This document shows, piece after piece, positions 451 to 39,011 of a DNA stretch of 41,085 bases. The position numbers and the translations under genes are program-made. Source of the DNA: Microcaldota archaeon (lineage in GTDB: Archaea; Micrarchaeota; Micrarchaeia; Micrarchaeales; Micrarchaeaceae); assembly GCA_021827525.1 (NCBI GenBank), contig JAKAVJ010000010.1, forward strand, positions 1 to 41,085, in the 5' to 3' direction. The notes beneath the pieces were generated by a model, which saw only the letters and a list, made by a program, of their open reading frames with translations, was not told the DNA's origin and did no database searches. The stretch's first letter is position 1; every line of letters begins with the position of its first letter.

Positions 451-519
451 TTACGCTATTTCAACGACCTTGTCCCTGCCTGATGCTCCGGATATTATCG
501 TTATGTCGCGCTTCTTTAC
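451..519 (-). pseudogene. 3' fragment of DUF167/YggU-family gene, separated from its 5' part by the tnpB element
   Basis: Minus-strand translation VKKRDITIISGASGRDKVVEIA* matches the C-terminal pattern of DUF167 proteins (xKxDIxIxSGxxSRxKxVxI). Confidence 0.85.
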
Positions 520-537
520 AGAATGCATAGCAGAAAG

Positions 538-558
538 CCCACGATTTTCAATCGTGGG
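538..558 (+). repeat. Left-end hairpin of the tnpB element
   Basis: CCCACGATT-TTC-AATCGTGGG, perfect 9-bp stem; flanked by direct repeat AATGCATAG (522..530 and 569..577). Confidence 0.8.
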
Positions 559-619
559 ATGAATGCGAAATGCATAGATTATTAATTATATCTAAGTATA
601 TTGTACGGTAGTTGAGTAA

Positions 620-1825
620 ATGAAACTAACGCAGGTTGTAGAGGTAGAGGGCAATTATGAAATACTTGACAATCTTGCAAAGATAACCAACGGATTGTAC
701 AATTCTGCATTGTACGAAATCAACCAAAGATACAGTAAAGAACAGAAATTCTACTTCTACTACGATCTCTGCAATATTCTAAAGGGCAACACCCTCTACG
801 CCTTATTGCCCTCCCAGACCGCCCAGGCCGTGTTGCAGAAAGTCGACGGCGCAATAAAGTCATTCCTGAAACTCCGCAGAAACAATGCAAATGCGGCATA
901 TCCAAGATACCACAAGAAAGATACTGCCTGGGTAATACCGTTCAAATCGCAGCAGATAAAAATTGATGGGAATATTTTGACAGTTCCAATGTCCATGAAG
1001 TACAGAGAAGAGAAGGGGTTGTCGCATCTTGATCTCAAAATTCCTGACCTGCGATATAGCGGAACCGTAAAATACACTGAATTGTATAAAACAGACAGAT
1101 GGTATGCATCAATAGTGATTGACGTAAAAGAGCAGCAGGAATCTGTGCCAAAAGGCAACCTCTACATCGATCTTGGTATTAAGAACCTCGCAGCAGTATT
1201 CGATGGCAAAAAGGTTGCGATTTATTCAGGAGGAAAAACCAGTTCTACAAACAGGTATAGAAACAAAAAGAATGCAGAACAACAGGCCATTCTTTCAACA
1301 ATAGGGAGAAAGACAAGTAAAGAGAAGAGGCAAATTGCAAGAAAGGCGTTGCATCAATTGAAGCAGCAACTGCATTCAATGACAAAGGCGATTGTACAAA
1401 CAGCAAAAGTTGAGAACAAAGGAATAGTCGTCGGTGATCTGTCGCACATAAGAGACAGCGCCAATTATAATGACAATGCCAATCAGAAGATACACCAGTG
1501 GCAGTTTGCTGAGATAACAAAACAACTCTTCTACAAGGCAAAGGAGTTCGGGGTAAAGATAACGAAAATATCTGAGGAAGATACTTCAAAGACGTGCGCA
1601 CTGTGCGGCCAAGAAACAAACGGAAGGGTGCACAGGGGATTGTATAGATGTAAACTATACAGCAAACAGTTCAACGCTGATGCGAATGGCGCGTTGAACA
1701 TAATGAAAAGGTATCTCCAAATCCCGCTGCAGCAAGGCAGTGGGATAGGAGTAGTGGGTGTCCTGGCACACCCCGCGGTATATCATTGGAATGAACACAG
1801 ATGGTGTAATGATGCCAACGGTTGA
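620..1825 (+). CDS. tnpB: TnpB (OrfB) RNA-guided nuclease-like protein, IS200/IS605 family
   Basis: RuvC-I LYIDLGIKNLAAVFDG, VVGDLSHIRDS, EEDTSKTCALCG zinc knuckle and FNADANGALNI RuvC-III. Confidence 0.93.
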   Translation: MKLTQVVEVEGNYEILDNLAKITNGLYNSALYEINQRYSKEQKFYFYYDLCNILKGNTLYALLPSQTAQAVLQKVDGAIKSFLKLRRNNANAAYPRYHKKDTAWVIPFKSQQIKIDGNILTVPMSMKYREEKGLSHLDLKIPDLRYSGTVKYTELYKTDRWYASIVIDVKEQQESVPKGNLYIDLGIKNLAAVFDGKKVAIYSGGKTSSTNRYRNKKNAEQQAILSTIGRKTSKEKRQIARKALHQLKQQLHSMTKAIVQTAKVENKGIVVGDLSHIRDSANYNDNANQKIHQWQFAEITKQLFYKAKEFGVKITKISEEDTSKTCALCGQETNGRVHRGLYRCKLYSKQFNADANGALNIMKRYLQIPLQQGSGIGVVGVLAHPAVYHWNEHRWCNDANG

Positions 1826-1841
1826 AACGAACCTTGAAACC

Positions 1842-1881
1842 GTGAGGAACCCCACAGAATTTATTCGTGGGAGGATGTCAG
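1842..1881 (+). ncRNA. Right end / predicted 3' scaffold of the TnpB omegaRNA
   Basis: GTGAGGAACCCCACAGAATTTATTCGTGGGAGGATGTCAG immediately downstream of tnpB; hairpin CCCAC(A)GAAT-TT-ATTCGTGGG; ends at the reconstructed insertion boundary. Confidence 0.65.
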
Positions 1882-2031
1882 ATTGAAGTGCTCAGATAGC
1901 AGCGATATGACCGCTTCGTTGGCCTTCCCGCGCTCCGGCTTTGCCGTTACCTTTATCCTATAGGTGCCGTCGTCCAAGCGCTCCACGGCATTAGACTTTG
2001 AATTCGGCGTTACGTGAATCTTTATTCTCAT
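1882..2031 (-). pseudogene. 5' part of DUF167/YggU-family gene, interrupted by the tnpB element
   Basis: MRIKIHVTPNSKSNAVERLDDGTYRIKVTAKPERGKANEAVISLLSEHFN; beyond 1882 the frame runs into the element (TSSHE*). Confidence 0.88.
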
Positions 2032-20326: not shown

Positions 20327-22396
20327 ATGGCAACTGACCCTGTATGCGGCATGTATGTTGATGAAAAAAGCTCGACGTTGACTACCGAAATGGAAGGCAG
20401 GAAGTATTATTTCTGTAGCGCAAACTGCAAGCTTCAGTTCGAGAGGCCTGAGAAGGAGCTCAGGAACCTAAAGATTGCACTGATGGTTTCATGGCCCCTC
20501 ACTATTGCAGTTGCAGTACTTACTTACGTTCTGCGCCTTGGATTTGGCAACTACATAATGTTGGTTCTGGCAAGCATAGTGCAGTTCTACGCTGGGCAGA
20601 GGTTCTACGCCGGCATTGCGGATGCGATAAAGAACAGGTCTGCCAACATGGATACGCTGATTGCAATAGGCACAAGCGCAGCGTGGGCTTACAGCGCAGT
20701 GGTTACGCTGTTCCCATCAATCTTCCCCGCTGGAGGAGTATACTTTGATACCTCCACAATTATAATCTCCCTGATACTCACCGGAACATACATGCAGAGG
20801 CTCGCGGAATCAAGGGCATCGGTTGCAGTTTCGGCATTAATAGCGTTGCAGCCAAAGATAGCACATAGGATTGAAGGTGATAGAGTAATAGACACCCCCG
20901 TAGAGCAGGTTAAGGAGGGATATATTCTGCTAATAAAGCCGGGGGAGAAGATACCTACTGATTCGGTGGTCTTAGAGGGTGAAAGTGCGGTTGATGAATC
21001 GTTGATCACAGGGGAGAGCATGCCACTGGCTAAGAAGGCAGGAGACAAGGCTATAGGTGGCACCGTAAATTTGACAAGCTCGCTGAAGGTCAAGGCTACA
21101 AAGGTAGGCGAAGACACTGCACTTGCGCAGATAATAAAGATAGTCAAGGATGCCGCATCAAGTAAGGTGCCGATACAGAAGCTTGCTGATAAGGTCTCAT
21201 CGTATTTTGTGCCCGTAGTGGTGCTCGTGGGCATTTTGGCGTCATTGTACTGGTACCTTTTTTGGGGTGTAGGTGTAAACACCGCGATCCTGATATTTGT
21301 CAGCGTGCTGATAATCGCATGCCCGTGCGCTCTGGGTATAGCAACGCCAGCTGCATTGCTAGTTTCCTCGGGCAGGGCGGCGAAAGCCGGGATACTCATC
21401 AAAAGCGGCGAAAGCCTGCAGAGGGCAAGCAAAGTCACTGCGGTTGTGCTGGATAAGACAGGCACGCTTACAAAAGGAACGCCGGAAGTTACCGACATAG
21501 TCGCAGCTGCAGGATATGATAGGATGGAGGTTCTAAGGCTCGCTGCCATAGCAGAGGCGAATTCGGAACACGTCATTGGGAAGGCCATTGTCTCGAAGGC
21601 GCAGAGCATGAAGATCAAGAGCGAGTTTCCAAAGAAGTTTGCTTATGCCCAGGGCAGCGGGGTAACTGCGCTTACTAAAAGCGATAAGAAAATAATTGTT
21701 GGCAACAGGGACCTATTTGGTAATATGCAACTTTCAGGTCTTGACGCAACGCTGCAGGAGTTCGAGTCGGAAGGCAAAACAGCACTCATAATAGGGGAGG
21801 ATGAAAAGGCAATCGGTCTTATAGCAATAGCGGACGCGCTCAAGGAGGACAGCAGGAAGGCGATAGATTTGTTTAAGAATGGAGGGTACAGTGTATGGCT
21901 CATAACTGGCGATAATCAGAAGACCGCAGATGCGGTTGCGAAGAGCTTGGGCATAGAGCACGTGATGTACCAGGCAAAGCCCAAGGACAAGCTGGACAAG
22001 ATAGCGGATCTGCAGAGGGAAGGCAGTGTGGTCGCCATGATCGGCGATGGCGTTAACGATGCACCAGCGCTGACAAAGGCCGATGTTGGGATAGCCATAG
22101 GAGCAGGCACCGATGTTGCAATACAGGCAGGCAGTATTATCTTGATAAAAAACAGCGTCTACGACGCGTTCGTGGCCCTCCGGCTAGGGAAGAGGACTAT
22201 GTCAAAGATAAGGCAGAATCTTTTCTGGGCCTTTGGCTACAATATAGTACTAATCCCGATTGCAGCTGGCGCGCTTATACCTGTTTTTTCAATAAGCATG
22301 TACAATCTCTTACCCATGCTCGCCGCTTTGGCAATGGCATTCAGCTCTGTGACTGTAGTCTCCAACTCGTTGTTGCTTGCGCGGTTCAAAGACTGA
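20327..22396 (+). CDS. copA: Copper-type P1B ATPase with N-terminal YHS domain
   Basis: TDPVCGMYVDEKSSTLTTEMEGRKYYFCSANC (YHS); CPCALGIATPAAL; DKTGTLTKG; MIGDGVNDAPAL. Start MATDPVCGM at 20327 preferred over 20300. Confidence 0.95.
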   Translation: MATDPVCGMYVDEKSSTLTTEMEGRKYYFCSANCKLQFERPEKELRNLKIALMVSWPLTIAVAVLTYVLRLGFGNYIMLVLASIVQFYAGQRFYAGIADAIKNRSANMDTLIAIGTSAAWAYSAVVTLFPSIFPAGGVYFDTSTIIISLILTGTYMQRLAESRASVAVSALIALQPKIAHRIEGDRVIDTPVEQVKEGYILLIKPGEKIPTDSVVLEGESAVDESLITGESMPLAKKAGDKAIGGTVNLTSSLKVKATKVGEDTALAQIIKIVKDAASSKVPIQKLADKVSSYFVPVVVLVGILASLYWYLFWGVGVNTAILIFVSVLIIACPCALGIATPAALLVSSGRAAKAGILIKSGESLQRASKVTAVVLDKTGTLTKGTPEVTDIVAAAGYDRMEVLRLAAIAEANSEHVIGKAIVSKAQSMKIKSEFPKKFAYAQGSGVTALTKSDKKIIVGNRDLFGNMQLSGLDATLQEFESEGKTALIIGEDEKAIGLIAIADALKEDSRKAIDLFKNGGYSVWLITGDNQKTADAVAKSLGIEHVMYQAKPKDKLDKIADLQREGSVVAMIGDGVNDAPALTKADVGIAIGAGTDVAIQAGSIILIKNSVYDAFVALRLGKRTMSKIRQNLFWAFGYNIVLIPIAAGALIPVFSISMYNLLPMLAALAMAFSSVTVVSNSLLLARFKD

Positions 22397-22434
22397 CATC
22401 CTCCCACTAATGAATTCTGCAGGGTTTCCCTCAC
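22393..22434 (-). mobile_element. Orphan right-end / omegaRNA-like remnant of an IS605/IS1341 element
   Basis: Minus strand GTGAGGGAAACCCTGCAGAATTCATTAGTGGGAGGATGTCAG closely matches the RE at 1842..1881; the terminal 15 nt GTGGGAGGATGTCAG are identical. Confidence 0.75.
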
Positions 22435-22538
22435 TTTGCTAAGTATACATCGCTTTGAGCTGGTCAACCCCCCAGCCTTCTAGGAAAAGGGAATTTGTGA
22501 AAATGTTGCTTTGCAACTGCAGGCAGTATAAATAGGGA

Positions 22539-22556
22539 GAAGGGCAAGCGCCCTTC
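22539..22556 (-). terminator. Hairpin downstream of the DUF5679-like gene
   Basis: GAAGGGC-AAGC-GCCCTTC perfect 7-bp stem just after the stop of the minus-strand gene. Confidence 0.45.
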
Positions 22557-22561
22557 AATGC

Positions 22562-22702
22562 TCACTTGCCGCCTATCTTGAACATCTTGGTGCCGCACAC
22601 GGGGCACACGCCTTCGAACGCCTTCTTGCCGTTCTTCATGGTTACCTCTTTAGCATCCTTCATCTCCCTCTTCTGCTTGCATTTCATACAATATGCTTCC
22701 AT
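22562..22702 (-). CDS. Small zinc-ribbon protein, DUF5679-like (46 aa), absent from the ORF track
   Basis: MEAYCMKCKQKREMKDAKEVTMKNGKKAFEGVCPVCGTKMFKIGGK*. Confidence 0.88.
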   Translation of the reverse strand: MEAYCMKCKQKREMKDAKEVTMKNGKKAFEGVCPVCGTKMFKIGGK

Positions 22703-22781
22703 GGTCTCACCTTTATGCCTTTAATAGATTGTATGCTAGGTTTTTAAATCCAGTGCCTTTTGGGCTTTCTTATGCCCGTTT

Positions 22782-23330
22782 TCAAAGGTACTTGAATATT
22801 CCGCCTATATCGGTGATCTTCCTGCGCACCCTTAAATGGCGGCGGTCCTTCCTCTCGTATGTGAAGCCGTCTATCATTACTGCTGATATGCCGGCCTTCT
22901 TTGCCGGGACATAGTCGCTTCCGTACTGGTCGCCGACCATCAATGCCGACGACTTGGGCAGATGCGCCTTCTTCAGTATCTTCAGTATCTCGTTGTCCTT
23001 GCTATCCGGCTTTGTATGGTGCGCAATGACTTTGGACGCTTCGACATAGTCGAAGAACTGCGCTATGCCGAAATGCTTCAGCTTCGTGTGCAGCCTCGCA
23101 TCCCTTTCTGCTTTAGTCCCGTCTGGCTGCGTGGATATTATGGCAAGCCTTATTCCTCTTTTCTTCAGGCTTCTGAGCGTCTCCTTCACGTTTGGCATCA
23201 GCATCTGGCGCTTCATCTCCACGTGCATGTCTCCGTCCTTTTCATAAATGATCCATGGAGGCGCGCTGAACTTTGTCTTCCTCGGGTACCAAAGGGTCCC
23301 ATCGCCGTCGAAGAATATTATCTTTTTCAT
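22782..23330 (-). CDS. HAD-superfamily phosphatase (MDP-1-like)
   Basis: MKKIIFFDGDGTLWYPR...LRSLKKRGIRLAIISTQPDG...ALMVGDQYGSDYVPAKKAGISAVMIDG. Start at 23330 preferred. Confidence 0.88.
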   Translation of the reverse strand: MKKIIFFDGDGTLWYPRKTKFSAPPWIIYEKDGDMHVEMKRQMLMPNVKETLRSLKKRGIRLAIISTQPDGTKAERDARLHTKLKHFGIAQFFDYVEASKVIAHHTKPDSKDNEILKILKKAHLPKSSALMVGDQYGSDYVPAKKAGISAVMIDGFTYERKDRRHLRVRRKITDIGGIFKYL

Positions 23331-37157: not shown

Positions 37158-39011
37158 TCACAATCTTGATAGCTTGCCCTCTTTCCTCTTCTCTGCGTCG
37201 AGCCTCTCCAGACCGTAGCTGTTAAGGTCTATGAATTTCATGCTGCTCCCTACAAGGCTTGGATTTGCATATGAAAGCTCGTAGAATGATTCCTGCATCA
37301 GCTTCCTGTAGTCCGGATGCCCCTGCCTAGAGGTCCTCAGCTCATGCATCCATACAGCCTCGCGCAGGTCGAATGAAGCGTACCACCTAAGCCTGTAGGC
37401 GAAAGGCACGACAGATTGCGCAAACTGCGGGAGCTTGGCCTTCATGTCTTTGTACAGGCTTGCTGCAGCTTCGATCTTATCCTTGTAGAAACCATCTGCA
37501 TTAATCCTGTATATCTCCGCAGGCATGGTGTATCCCTCGTCTATGCCGAGATCCTTCCTCACCTGCATCGCAAACCTGTTCCTCTGCAGATCCCTGAATA
37601 TGCCGAAGTTGCCCCTCCATTCCTCTATGTAGTTGGCGTTCTCGAAGGACCTCGGGGGCTTCTGCCTCCTATTAGTCCTACCCTGTACGGAAGCGCTTAT
37701 TATGGCTTCTGCATTCACATCCGATGACTTGCCTAGATCAGATCTCAGGAGCGAAACTATTCTCTTGAACGGCAATGAGCTGTATGGGTATACGCTTGCC
37801 GCAGCCACTGTGTAGAGGGACTTTTCATCGCCTTCGGAACTTACGAGTTCAACTTCCCTTCCATCATCTTTTTGCCGCCTTAGCATTCTTGCGCTATTCT
37901 CTTCGACCGATCTGCTGCCATCTGCCTTGCGCGCATATAGCCTGTCTATCTCATGGCCTAGTCTTTCCATGAGCTGCCTCTGCTCGCGCATGAATTTTAT
38001 CTCCTCCGTGCCGTGCTGGCTCATGACTCCCCCTATCAGGTATTCATTGTCCTTCCTGAGCTCATTGTAGCACTGCGTTGCCGTCTGTATTATAGGAGGA
38101 TAGTCCAAGGACAGCATCTTCTTCAGCGAATGGTCAAAGCTCCTGAAACTTGCATACCATCCAAGGTTGGTCATTGTTGACGCTGGAAGCAGGCCCCTTG
38201 CGAGATCGAGCGACTTGGCCTTTACAGAGCTCTTGTATGCAGAGCGGGCGCGCTTCTCCTCGTTCTCCGCATCATCAACCTCTCCTGCCTGTATTGCGCT
38301 GAACTTTGCTGATTGCGGCACCCCGTTTACCTTTACCGAGAATACCTCCTCCTCTATGGGCATCGACCTGTATAGATATGCCTCAATGTCTGAGCGCAGG
38401 CGCTTGACCGAATCGAACAGAAGGTCCATTGTCTGCGTATATTCCCCGGACAGCGGTGACTGCATCACGAGCTCGTACTCCTTGTACGGATAGCTGCCTG
38501 TTCCGTCCTTGCTCTTGCCTATTATATAGCCTTCACTGTCGATCTTGTATTTTGATGTGAAATCCACATACCTGGTGGATTTCTCTATATAGCCGGCAAG
38601 CCTTCCATCCTCTATGTATTTCGCTTCGAGCTGGTCGACCCCCTCAATGGCTATATGGGCTCCGGCGTTGTCTATTACGGAATCGTCGCCATACTCTGCA
38701 AACACCCTCTTGAAGAACGCGTTTGCCCTCTTCCCGCCTATCGAGAAGCTGTTTGCCCTCTTTATCGCATCTATTGCCTCGTGGATGTCGCTGTAGTAGC
38801 TGCCTGTCTCTGGATCTGTGGCGAACTCCTTTAGGAAAAGCCTTCGCATGCTCATCTCGGACCTGGAATACCTGGCTACGAGCGCCGCCTTCGTAACCTC
38901 AGGCATGCTTTGTAATACGAATACATTGCTGTCGACATTGCTGAAAAATGCGGATAGCACATCTTTCTCTTCATCAGTATATCTCTCTGTGAACTTAGTA
39001 AGACCCGGCAT
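37158..39011 (-). CDS. ThyX-like (FAD-dependent thymidylate synthase-like) long two-part protein
   Basis: ALVARYSRSEMSMRRLFLKEF, AEYGDDSVIDNAGAHIAIEGVDQLEAKYIEDGRLAGYIEKSTRYVDF; second half NFGIFRDLQRNRFAMQVRKDLG; overlaps the tmk ORF region. Confidence 0.75.
   Translation of the reverse strand: MPGLTKFTERYTDEEKDVLSAFFSNVDSNVFVLQSMPEVTKAALVARYSRSEMSMRRLFLKEFATDPETGSYYSDIHEAIDAIKRANSFSIGGKRANAFFKRVFAEYGDDSVIDNAGAHIAIEGVDQLEAKYIEDGRLAGYIEKSTRYVDFTSKYKIDSEGYIIGKSKDGTGSYPYKEYELVMQSPLSGEYTQTMDLLFDSVKRLRSDIEAYLYRSMPIEEEVFSVKVNGVPQSAKFSAIQAGEVDDAENEEKRARSAYKSSVKAKSLDLARGLLPASTMTNLGWYASFRSFDHSLKKMLSLDYPPIIQTATQCYNELRKDNEYLIGGVMSQHGTEEIKFMREQRQLMERLGHEIDRLYARKADGSRSVEENSARMLRRQKDDGREVELVSSEGDEKSLYTVAAASVYPYSSLPFKRIVSLLRSDLGKSSDVNAEAIISASVQGRTNRRQKPPRSFENANYIEEWRGNFGIFRDLQRNRFAMQVRKDLGIDEGYTMPAEIYRINADGFYKDKIEAAASLYKDMKAKLPQFAQSVVPFAYRLRWYASFDLREAVWMHELRTSRQGHPDYRKLMQESFYELSYANPSLVGSSMKFIDLNSYGLERLDAEKRKEGKLSRL

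What the first reader, a model, noticed from the sequence alone, without database searches (positions are those of the whole stretch)
451..2031. tnpB element precisely splits a DUF167/YggU gene; the pre-insertion allele can be rebuilt
Seen: minus-strand halves (1882..2031 and 451..519) flank the element. Removing 520..1881 joins ...GAG CAC TTC AAT | GTA AAG AAG CGC GAC... in frame, giving a 72-aa protein MRIKIHVTPNSKSNAVERLDDGTYRIKVTAKPERGKANEAVISLLSEHFNVKKRDITIISGASGRDKVVEIA. It fits the DUF167 family end to end. This fixes element boundaries at base resolution, shows TTTAC as the left-flanking target, and suggests insertion without target-site duplication. Inference: the insertion is fairly recent because both halves remain intact.
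Basis: partly seen in the sequence, partly recalled or inferred. Interest (0 to 1): 0.75.

Follow-up and report, generated by a model that had tools for sequence, protein, structure and literature searches.

The report
TnpB-only transposon interrupting archaeal DUF167 gene
A small transposon that carries only an RNA-guided nuclease gene (tnpB) has jumped cleanly into a dispensable archaeal gene; its ends are nearly identical to those of transposase-bearing cousins with a very different nuclease, so it most likely moves by borrowing their transposase.

Summary
Window 520..1881 (1362 bp) is a discrete insertion in a DUF167/YggU gene. Removing it restores a 72-aa protein matching PF02594 end to end (E=3.5e-25). 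Two same-genus genomes carry the uninterrupted gene at the syntenic place, and the alignment breaks exactly at 520/1882. Copies in two other Micrarchaeota-type genomes fix the same ends.

The element belongs to the IS200/IS605 superfamily: TTAC target, no target duplication, subterminal hairpins, and IS608-type guide/cleavage-site pairing that covaries across related ends. It is tnpB-only. Its ends are 100% (left) and 95% (right) identical to those of autonomous tnpA+tnpB elements whose TnpB is only 27% identical, while closer TnpB relatives have other hairpins; transposition in trans by a borrowed Y1 transposase is therefore likely.

The TnpB lacks the usual RuvC-II glutamate but has the invariant alternative one ('Ealt'), evolves under purifying selection (dN/dS about 0.1) and overlaps a predicted ωRNA (RF02656, E=5.6e-5). 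The insertion postdates the split from its congeners; 'fairly recent' is only weakly supported. New member of a known kind, with one twist: ends shared across the Ecan/Ealt TnpB divide.

The parts
1882..2031 (-). 5' part of the interrupted DUF167/YggU gene (codons 1-50)
   Evidence: PF02594 match; syntenic intact gene in G001 and G002
451..519 (-). 3' part of the interrupted DUF167/YggU gene (codons 51-72 plus stop)
515..519 (+). TTTAC: target (TTAC) retained at the left flank; predicted TnpB TAM
   Evidence: TTAC at 25 of 25 left ends with guide AAAG that have a TTAN target at the expected distance
520..1881 (+). whole tnpB-only IS200/IS605-superfamily element, 1362 bp
   Evidence: empty site in congeners; two other 1362-bp copies with the same ends
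520..569 (+). left end: AGAATGCATAGCAG, guide AAAG (534-537), hairpin CCCACGATT-TTC-AATCGTGGG (538-558)
   Evidence: (DNA fold z=-4.6)
620..1825 (+). tnpB, 401 aa, RuvC D184 / Ealt E319 / D354, G272 in place of the canonical Glu, second zinc-finger CxxC reads CxxY
   Evidence: NF040570 guided_TnpB 168 bits; dN/dS 0.05-0.11
1709..1881 (+). predicted ωRNA scaffold overlapping the 3' end of tnpB; the guide would be the flank from 1882 (ATTGAAGTGCTCAGATAGCA...)
   Evidence: RF02656 (archaeal ωRNA, 'sot') E=5.6e-5 at 1709-1871, below Rfam's gathering score; fold z=-2.8; reduced synonymous change in the last 40 codons
1847..1881 (+). right end: guide GAAC (1847-1850), hairpin CCCAC-A-GAA-TTTA-TTC-GTGGG (1851-1871), right cleavage site TCAG (1878-1881)

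Best explanation
Window 520..1881 is a non-autonomous, tnpB-only transposon of the IS200/IS605 superfamily that inserted 3' of a TTAC in a DUF167/YggU gene of a Micrarchaeota-type archaeon and truncated it. A Y1 (HUH) TnpA encoded by an autonomous element with the same ends most likely excised it as a single-stranded circle and pasted it next to TTAC, chosen by base pairing with the left guide AAAG; this leaves no target duplication. Once in place, TnpB with an ωRNA made from the 3' end of tnpB, the right end and the adjoining DUF167 sequence would cut empty copies of the site (TTTAC + ATTGAAGTGCTC...) and so help to keep the element there. Shown: insertion, boundaries, target, end structure, guide/cleavage covariation, shared ends, TnpB family and selection. 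Inferred: TnpA acting in trans, TnpB activity through the alternative glutamate, ωRNA limits and homing.
For: Empty site in two congeners. Same 1362-bp element with the same ends in L034 and L035. Shared ends: 42-nt left and right ends are 100% and 95% identical to those of L049, which encodes a Y1 TnpA (its homologue in L048 matches NF033573), with TnpB identity of only 27%; the 77%-identical TnpB relative L103 has different hairpins. Guide code: right-end pairs TCAG:GAAC, TCAC:GAAG, TCAA:GAAT in 41 of 43 distinct ends; left-end TTAC:AAAG 25 of 25 and TTAT:AAAA 4 of 4; same scheme as IS608 (PMC5934647). Internally deleted copies keep both ends next to TTAC (L146, L152). TnpB. ωRNA.
Against: No TnpA of this type is found in the 69%-complete own assembly, and the near-complete G009, which also carries the element, has only a divergent IS200 TnpA; so the helper is not seen in the same genome. 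The structure model is too poor (pLDDT under 50 over most of 319-401) to place E319 in the active site. RF02656 is below its gathering score. Copy L034 lacks TTAC; it abuts an IS200-type element.
Confidence: 0.87

Rival explanations
1. The DUF167 gene was broken by an assembly error or by chance adjacency of two gene fragments, not by transposition.
For: The window is from a fragmented assembly (31 contigs).
Against: The break falls exactly between TTAC and an element end known from independent genomes; both congeners have the uninterrupted gene.
Confidence: 0.02
2. The TnpB is a nuclease-dead, domesticated regulator (TldR-like) because the canonical RuvC-II glutamate is missing.
For: G272 replaces the canonical Glu, and the fourth zinc-finger Cys is Tyr or His in the whole lineage.
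Against: D184, D354 and E319 are invariant; E319 lies six residues before the zinc finger, as in Ealt TnpBs and Fanzors; the gene still sits in an element with both ends, in several different sites, with deletion derivatives, rather than at a fixed host locus.
Confidence: 0.1
3. The element arose in place from an autonomous IS605 element by loss of tnpA and is now immobile; its shared ends are only inherited.
For: More distant Ealt relatives L036 and L038 have a tnpA directly upstream.
Against: Three copies of identical length (1362 bp) in different sites and genomes, plus an empty site in congeners, mean that the tnpA-less form itself moved; its ends match the Ecan autonomous elements better than those of its own more distant Ealt relatives.
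Confidence: 0.05

Closest known systems
IS608 / ISDra2 (IS200/IS605 family)
   Same: TTAC target retained on the left (IS608), no duplication, subterminal hairpins, left guide AAAG identical to IS608's, right guide/cleavage pair of the same form
   Different: No tnpA in the element; right pair is GAAC:TCAG instead of GAAT:TCAA; TnpB is Ealt, whereas ISDra2 TnpB uses the canonical glutamate
IS1341-group (tnpB-only) elements with ωRNA/sotRNA of haloarchaea (RF02656)
   Same: tnpB-only, sense-overlapping structured RNA at the 3' end
   Different: RNA match is below the gathering score; different lineage; an autonomous partner with the same ends is identified here
Ealt, D-hydrophobic-G TnpBs (Yoon et al. 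2023, PMC10711439), relatives of Fanzors
   Same: Glutamate six residues before the zinc finger, DLG at RuvC-I
   Different: Not DPG, so not a pro-Fanzor; second CxxC is CxxY/H; linked to Y1 TnpA ends, not IS607
tnpA-less IS605 copies of Halanaerobium hydrogeniformans (PMC7290912)
   Same: Intact ends without tnpA, inferred mobility in trans, signs of recombination between elements
   Different: There all copies are one IS605 group of one genome; here TnpBs of about 27% identity share the same ends

Membership tests
DUF167 / YggU (PF02594) | Match of the rejoined protein to the family profile along its length | tested here: met
   E=3.5e-25, residues 2-71 to profile 3-75 of 76
DUF167 / YggU (PF02594) | Contiguous gene at the same place in relatives | tested here: met
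   G001 and G002
IS200/IS605 superfamily element | Subterminal hairpins instead of terminal inverted repeats; insertion 3' of a short target without duplication | tested here: met
IS200/IS605 superfamily element | Guide tetranucleotides matched to left and right cleavage sites | tested here: met
   covariation across related ends; the biochemical pairing itself was not testable
IS200/IS605 superfamily element | Y1 (HUH) TnpA encoded in the element (autonomous members only) | tested here: not met
   none in the element or own assembly; present in elements with the same ends. Hence 'non-autonomous, IS1341-like'
RNA-guided TnpB nuclease | Profile match and RuvC D-E-D triad | tested here: met
   NF040570 168 bits (cut-off 100); D184, E319 (alternative position), D354 invariant
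RNA-guided TnpB nuclease | RNA-guided cleavage next to a TAM | not testable with these tools
   needs protein and RNA
RNA-guided TnpB nuclease | Structured ωRNA at the right end | tested here: inconclusive
   RF02656 E=5.6e-5 but below gathering; fold z=-2.8; 8 pairs with changes on both sides, mostly in the terminal hairpin, which TnpA also constrains
pro-Fanzor / Fanzor | DPG at RuvC-I together with Ealt | tested here: not met
   DLG

The most novel reading that the evidence does not exclude
In this archaeal order one set of transposon ends and one Y1 transposase family serves interchangeable TnpB nucleases from both sides of the Ecan/Ealt divide, so that tnpB genes are swapped as cassettes (or spread as tnpB-only satellites) independently of the mobility module, and ωRNA 3' ends are made to converge on the shared right end.
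Probability: 0.4. Interest if true: 0.55.

Novelty: new member of a known kind. Interest (0 to 1): 0.42.

Why it matters
It is a clean natural experiment: filled and empty alleles of one site, the predicted guide read directly from the flank, and an autonomous partner with nearly identical ends. It makes two questions testable: whether Ealt TnpBs from archaea are active nucleases, and whether a tnpB-only element is carried by another element's TnpA. A 401-aa Ealt TnpB with a degenerate zinc finger is also an unusual compact enzyme.

Tried and rejected
AlphaFold2 model of TnpB from 8 sequences: mean pLDDT 57.7 and under 50 over most of 319-401, so it was not used for active-site geometry or fold search. 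A first translation reference was out of frame. PDB search places the C-terminal region with Cas12f, TnpB and the Fanzor-like L79 but printed no alignment to an Ealt enzyme. The idea that G272 and the CxxY motif mark a decaying gene was rejected: the Gly is fixed and the fourth Cys is absent in all seven relatives, with dN/dS about 0.1. Missing TTAC at L034 looked like a counterexample, but that copy abuts an IS200-type element. Dating the insertion was not possible beyond an upper bound.

Full report
Observation. The minus-strand parts 1882..2031 and 451..519 and the intervening 520..1881 are as stated. It matches PF02594 at E=3.5e-25 over residues 2-71; the N-terminal 50 residues alone reach only 54.7 of the 88.4 bits, so the match continues across the junction. 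The truncated gene as it stands reads six residues into the element (LTSSHE) and stops.

Empty site. Of 99 related genomes searched, 40 have a DUF167 gene (22 of 46 good-quality ones), so the gene is often absent and its loss tolerable. The two same-genus genomes carry it unbroken between the same neighbours (by eye, a threonine-synthase-like gene and a CBS-domain gene). blastn of the G002 locus aligns 1650 bases down to window 1882 and resumes at 520. A520 and A1882 are the same letter, hence one base of ambiguity. The congeners have TTGAC where the window has TTTAC, so they lack the TTAC target at this place.

Boundaries from other copies. Their right ends stop at GTCAG with unrelated DNA after it. 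This settles the ends as 520 and 1881. Micrarchaeota as the host is inferred from these same-family genomes.

Family of ends. The last 18 bases (up to one mismatch) occur in 39 of 164 genomes of the order, against none for the reversed pattern. Around these sites there are: autonomous elements of about 1.8 kb with a 130-aa Y1 TnpA, usually a small hydrophobic ORF of about 79 aa, and a 339-aa TnpB (L046-L050, L120, L150, L159); tnpB-only elements like the window's; and internally deleted forms from 54 to about 420 bp. Nearly all follow TTAC.

Guide code. At the right end, the fourth base of the guide next to the hairpin is complementary to the last base of the cleavage site in 41 of 43 distinct ends: GAAC with TCAG, GAAG with TCAC, GAAT with TCAA. 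Of the two exceptions one is a hairpin register shift in my script (L157) and one a left-right fusion (L112). At the left end, guide AAAG goes with TTAC 25 of 25 times and AAAA with TTAT 4 of 4, among ends with a TTAN target. These are not independent events, since related copies are counted, but three right types and two left types all obey the rule. IS608 uses AAAG with TTAC and GAAT with TCAA (PMC5934647). This supports single-strand Y1 transposition for this family.

Borrowed transposase. The window's left end is identical over 42 nt to that of L049, and its right end 95% identical, although the TnpBs share 27%. The TnpB relative L103 (77%) has other hairpins, and its right hairpin resembles that of the Ecan element L060. 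Ealt elements with their own TnpA exist (L036, L038; TnpA 77-78% identical to that of the Ecan elements). So ends and TnpB have separate histories. No such TnpA was found in the own assembly, which is only 69% complete; transposition in trans is therefore inferred. The same inference was made for tnpA-less copies in Halanaerobium (PMC7290912).

TnpB. NCBIfam NF040570 matches at 168 bits. In all eight lineage members the canonical RuvC-II glutamate is Gly (G[DN]L) and a glutamate lies six residues before the first zinc-finger Cys (E319); in all 14 other TnpBs examined the canonical glutamate is present and that position is Pro or Ala. This is the Ealt arrangement of Yoon et al. 2023 (PMC10711439); with DLG instead of DPG the protein is not a pro-Fanzor. 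The fourth zinc-finger position is Tyr or His throughout the lineage. dN/dS between copies is 0.05-0.11. Together this argues for a working protein, but activity is untested.

ωRNA. The 3' end of tnpB plus right end matches RF02656, the archaeal sotRNA family now called ωRNA (PMC12558985), full length at E=5.6e-5 though below the gathering score; it folds better than shuffles (z=-2.8); and the last 40 codons show fewer synonymous changes than the rest in comparisons with L103 (6 of 30 against about 48%, p about 0.004; one chosen stretch, so mild evidence). RNAalifold also pairs TGGCA in tnpB with TGTCA at the right end, mostly invariant pairs. The guide would start at 1882, so the target is the empty DUF167 allele behind TTTAC, as in the ISDra2 model (PMC8612924).

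Verdict. The finding is correct and well observed. The element is a new member of a known kind. The added point of interest is that the same ends carry TnpBs from both sides of the Ecan/Ealt divide.

Noticed in passing
window 22393-22434 (-): Solo right end of this family (86% over 42 bp) abutting the 3' end of a copper-type P-ATPase gene, whose TGA stop lies inside it; no tnpB beside it. G001 has the same at 98% identity; G002 instead has about 4 kb with several ORFs there.
   Followed up: partly
window 22100-22800 compared with G001 (L097): 98% DNA identity to G001 here but only 83-86% at the DUF167 locus; possible recent exchange between congeners or uneven conservation.
   Followed up: no
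L046, L048, L049, L050 and others, between tnpA and tnpB: Small ORF of about 79 aa with two hydrophobic stretches in the autonomous elements, conserved; function unknown.
   Followed up: no
L126, L140, L141 (about 420 bp), L142 (377 bp): MITE-like family with the same ends, an open frame of about 112-126 aa in four copies and no recognisable transposase.
   Followed up: no
L101, upstream of the copy in G009: IS200-type, tnpA-only element with other ends directly abuts the left end of the tnpB-only copy.
   Followed up: partly
window 37158-39011 (-): 617-aa ORF that by eye looks like a double ThyX-type thymidylate synthase, followed by a thymidylate-kinase-like ORF; not checked against profiles.
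   Followed up: no
G000:C8:6664-6795 and G000:C29:26-169 (L064, L065): Two weak, sub-threshold TnpB zinc-finger matches in short ORFs, probably remnants of other TnpBs.
   Followed up: no
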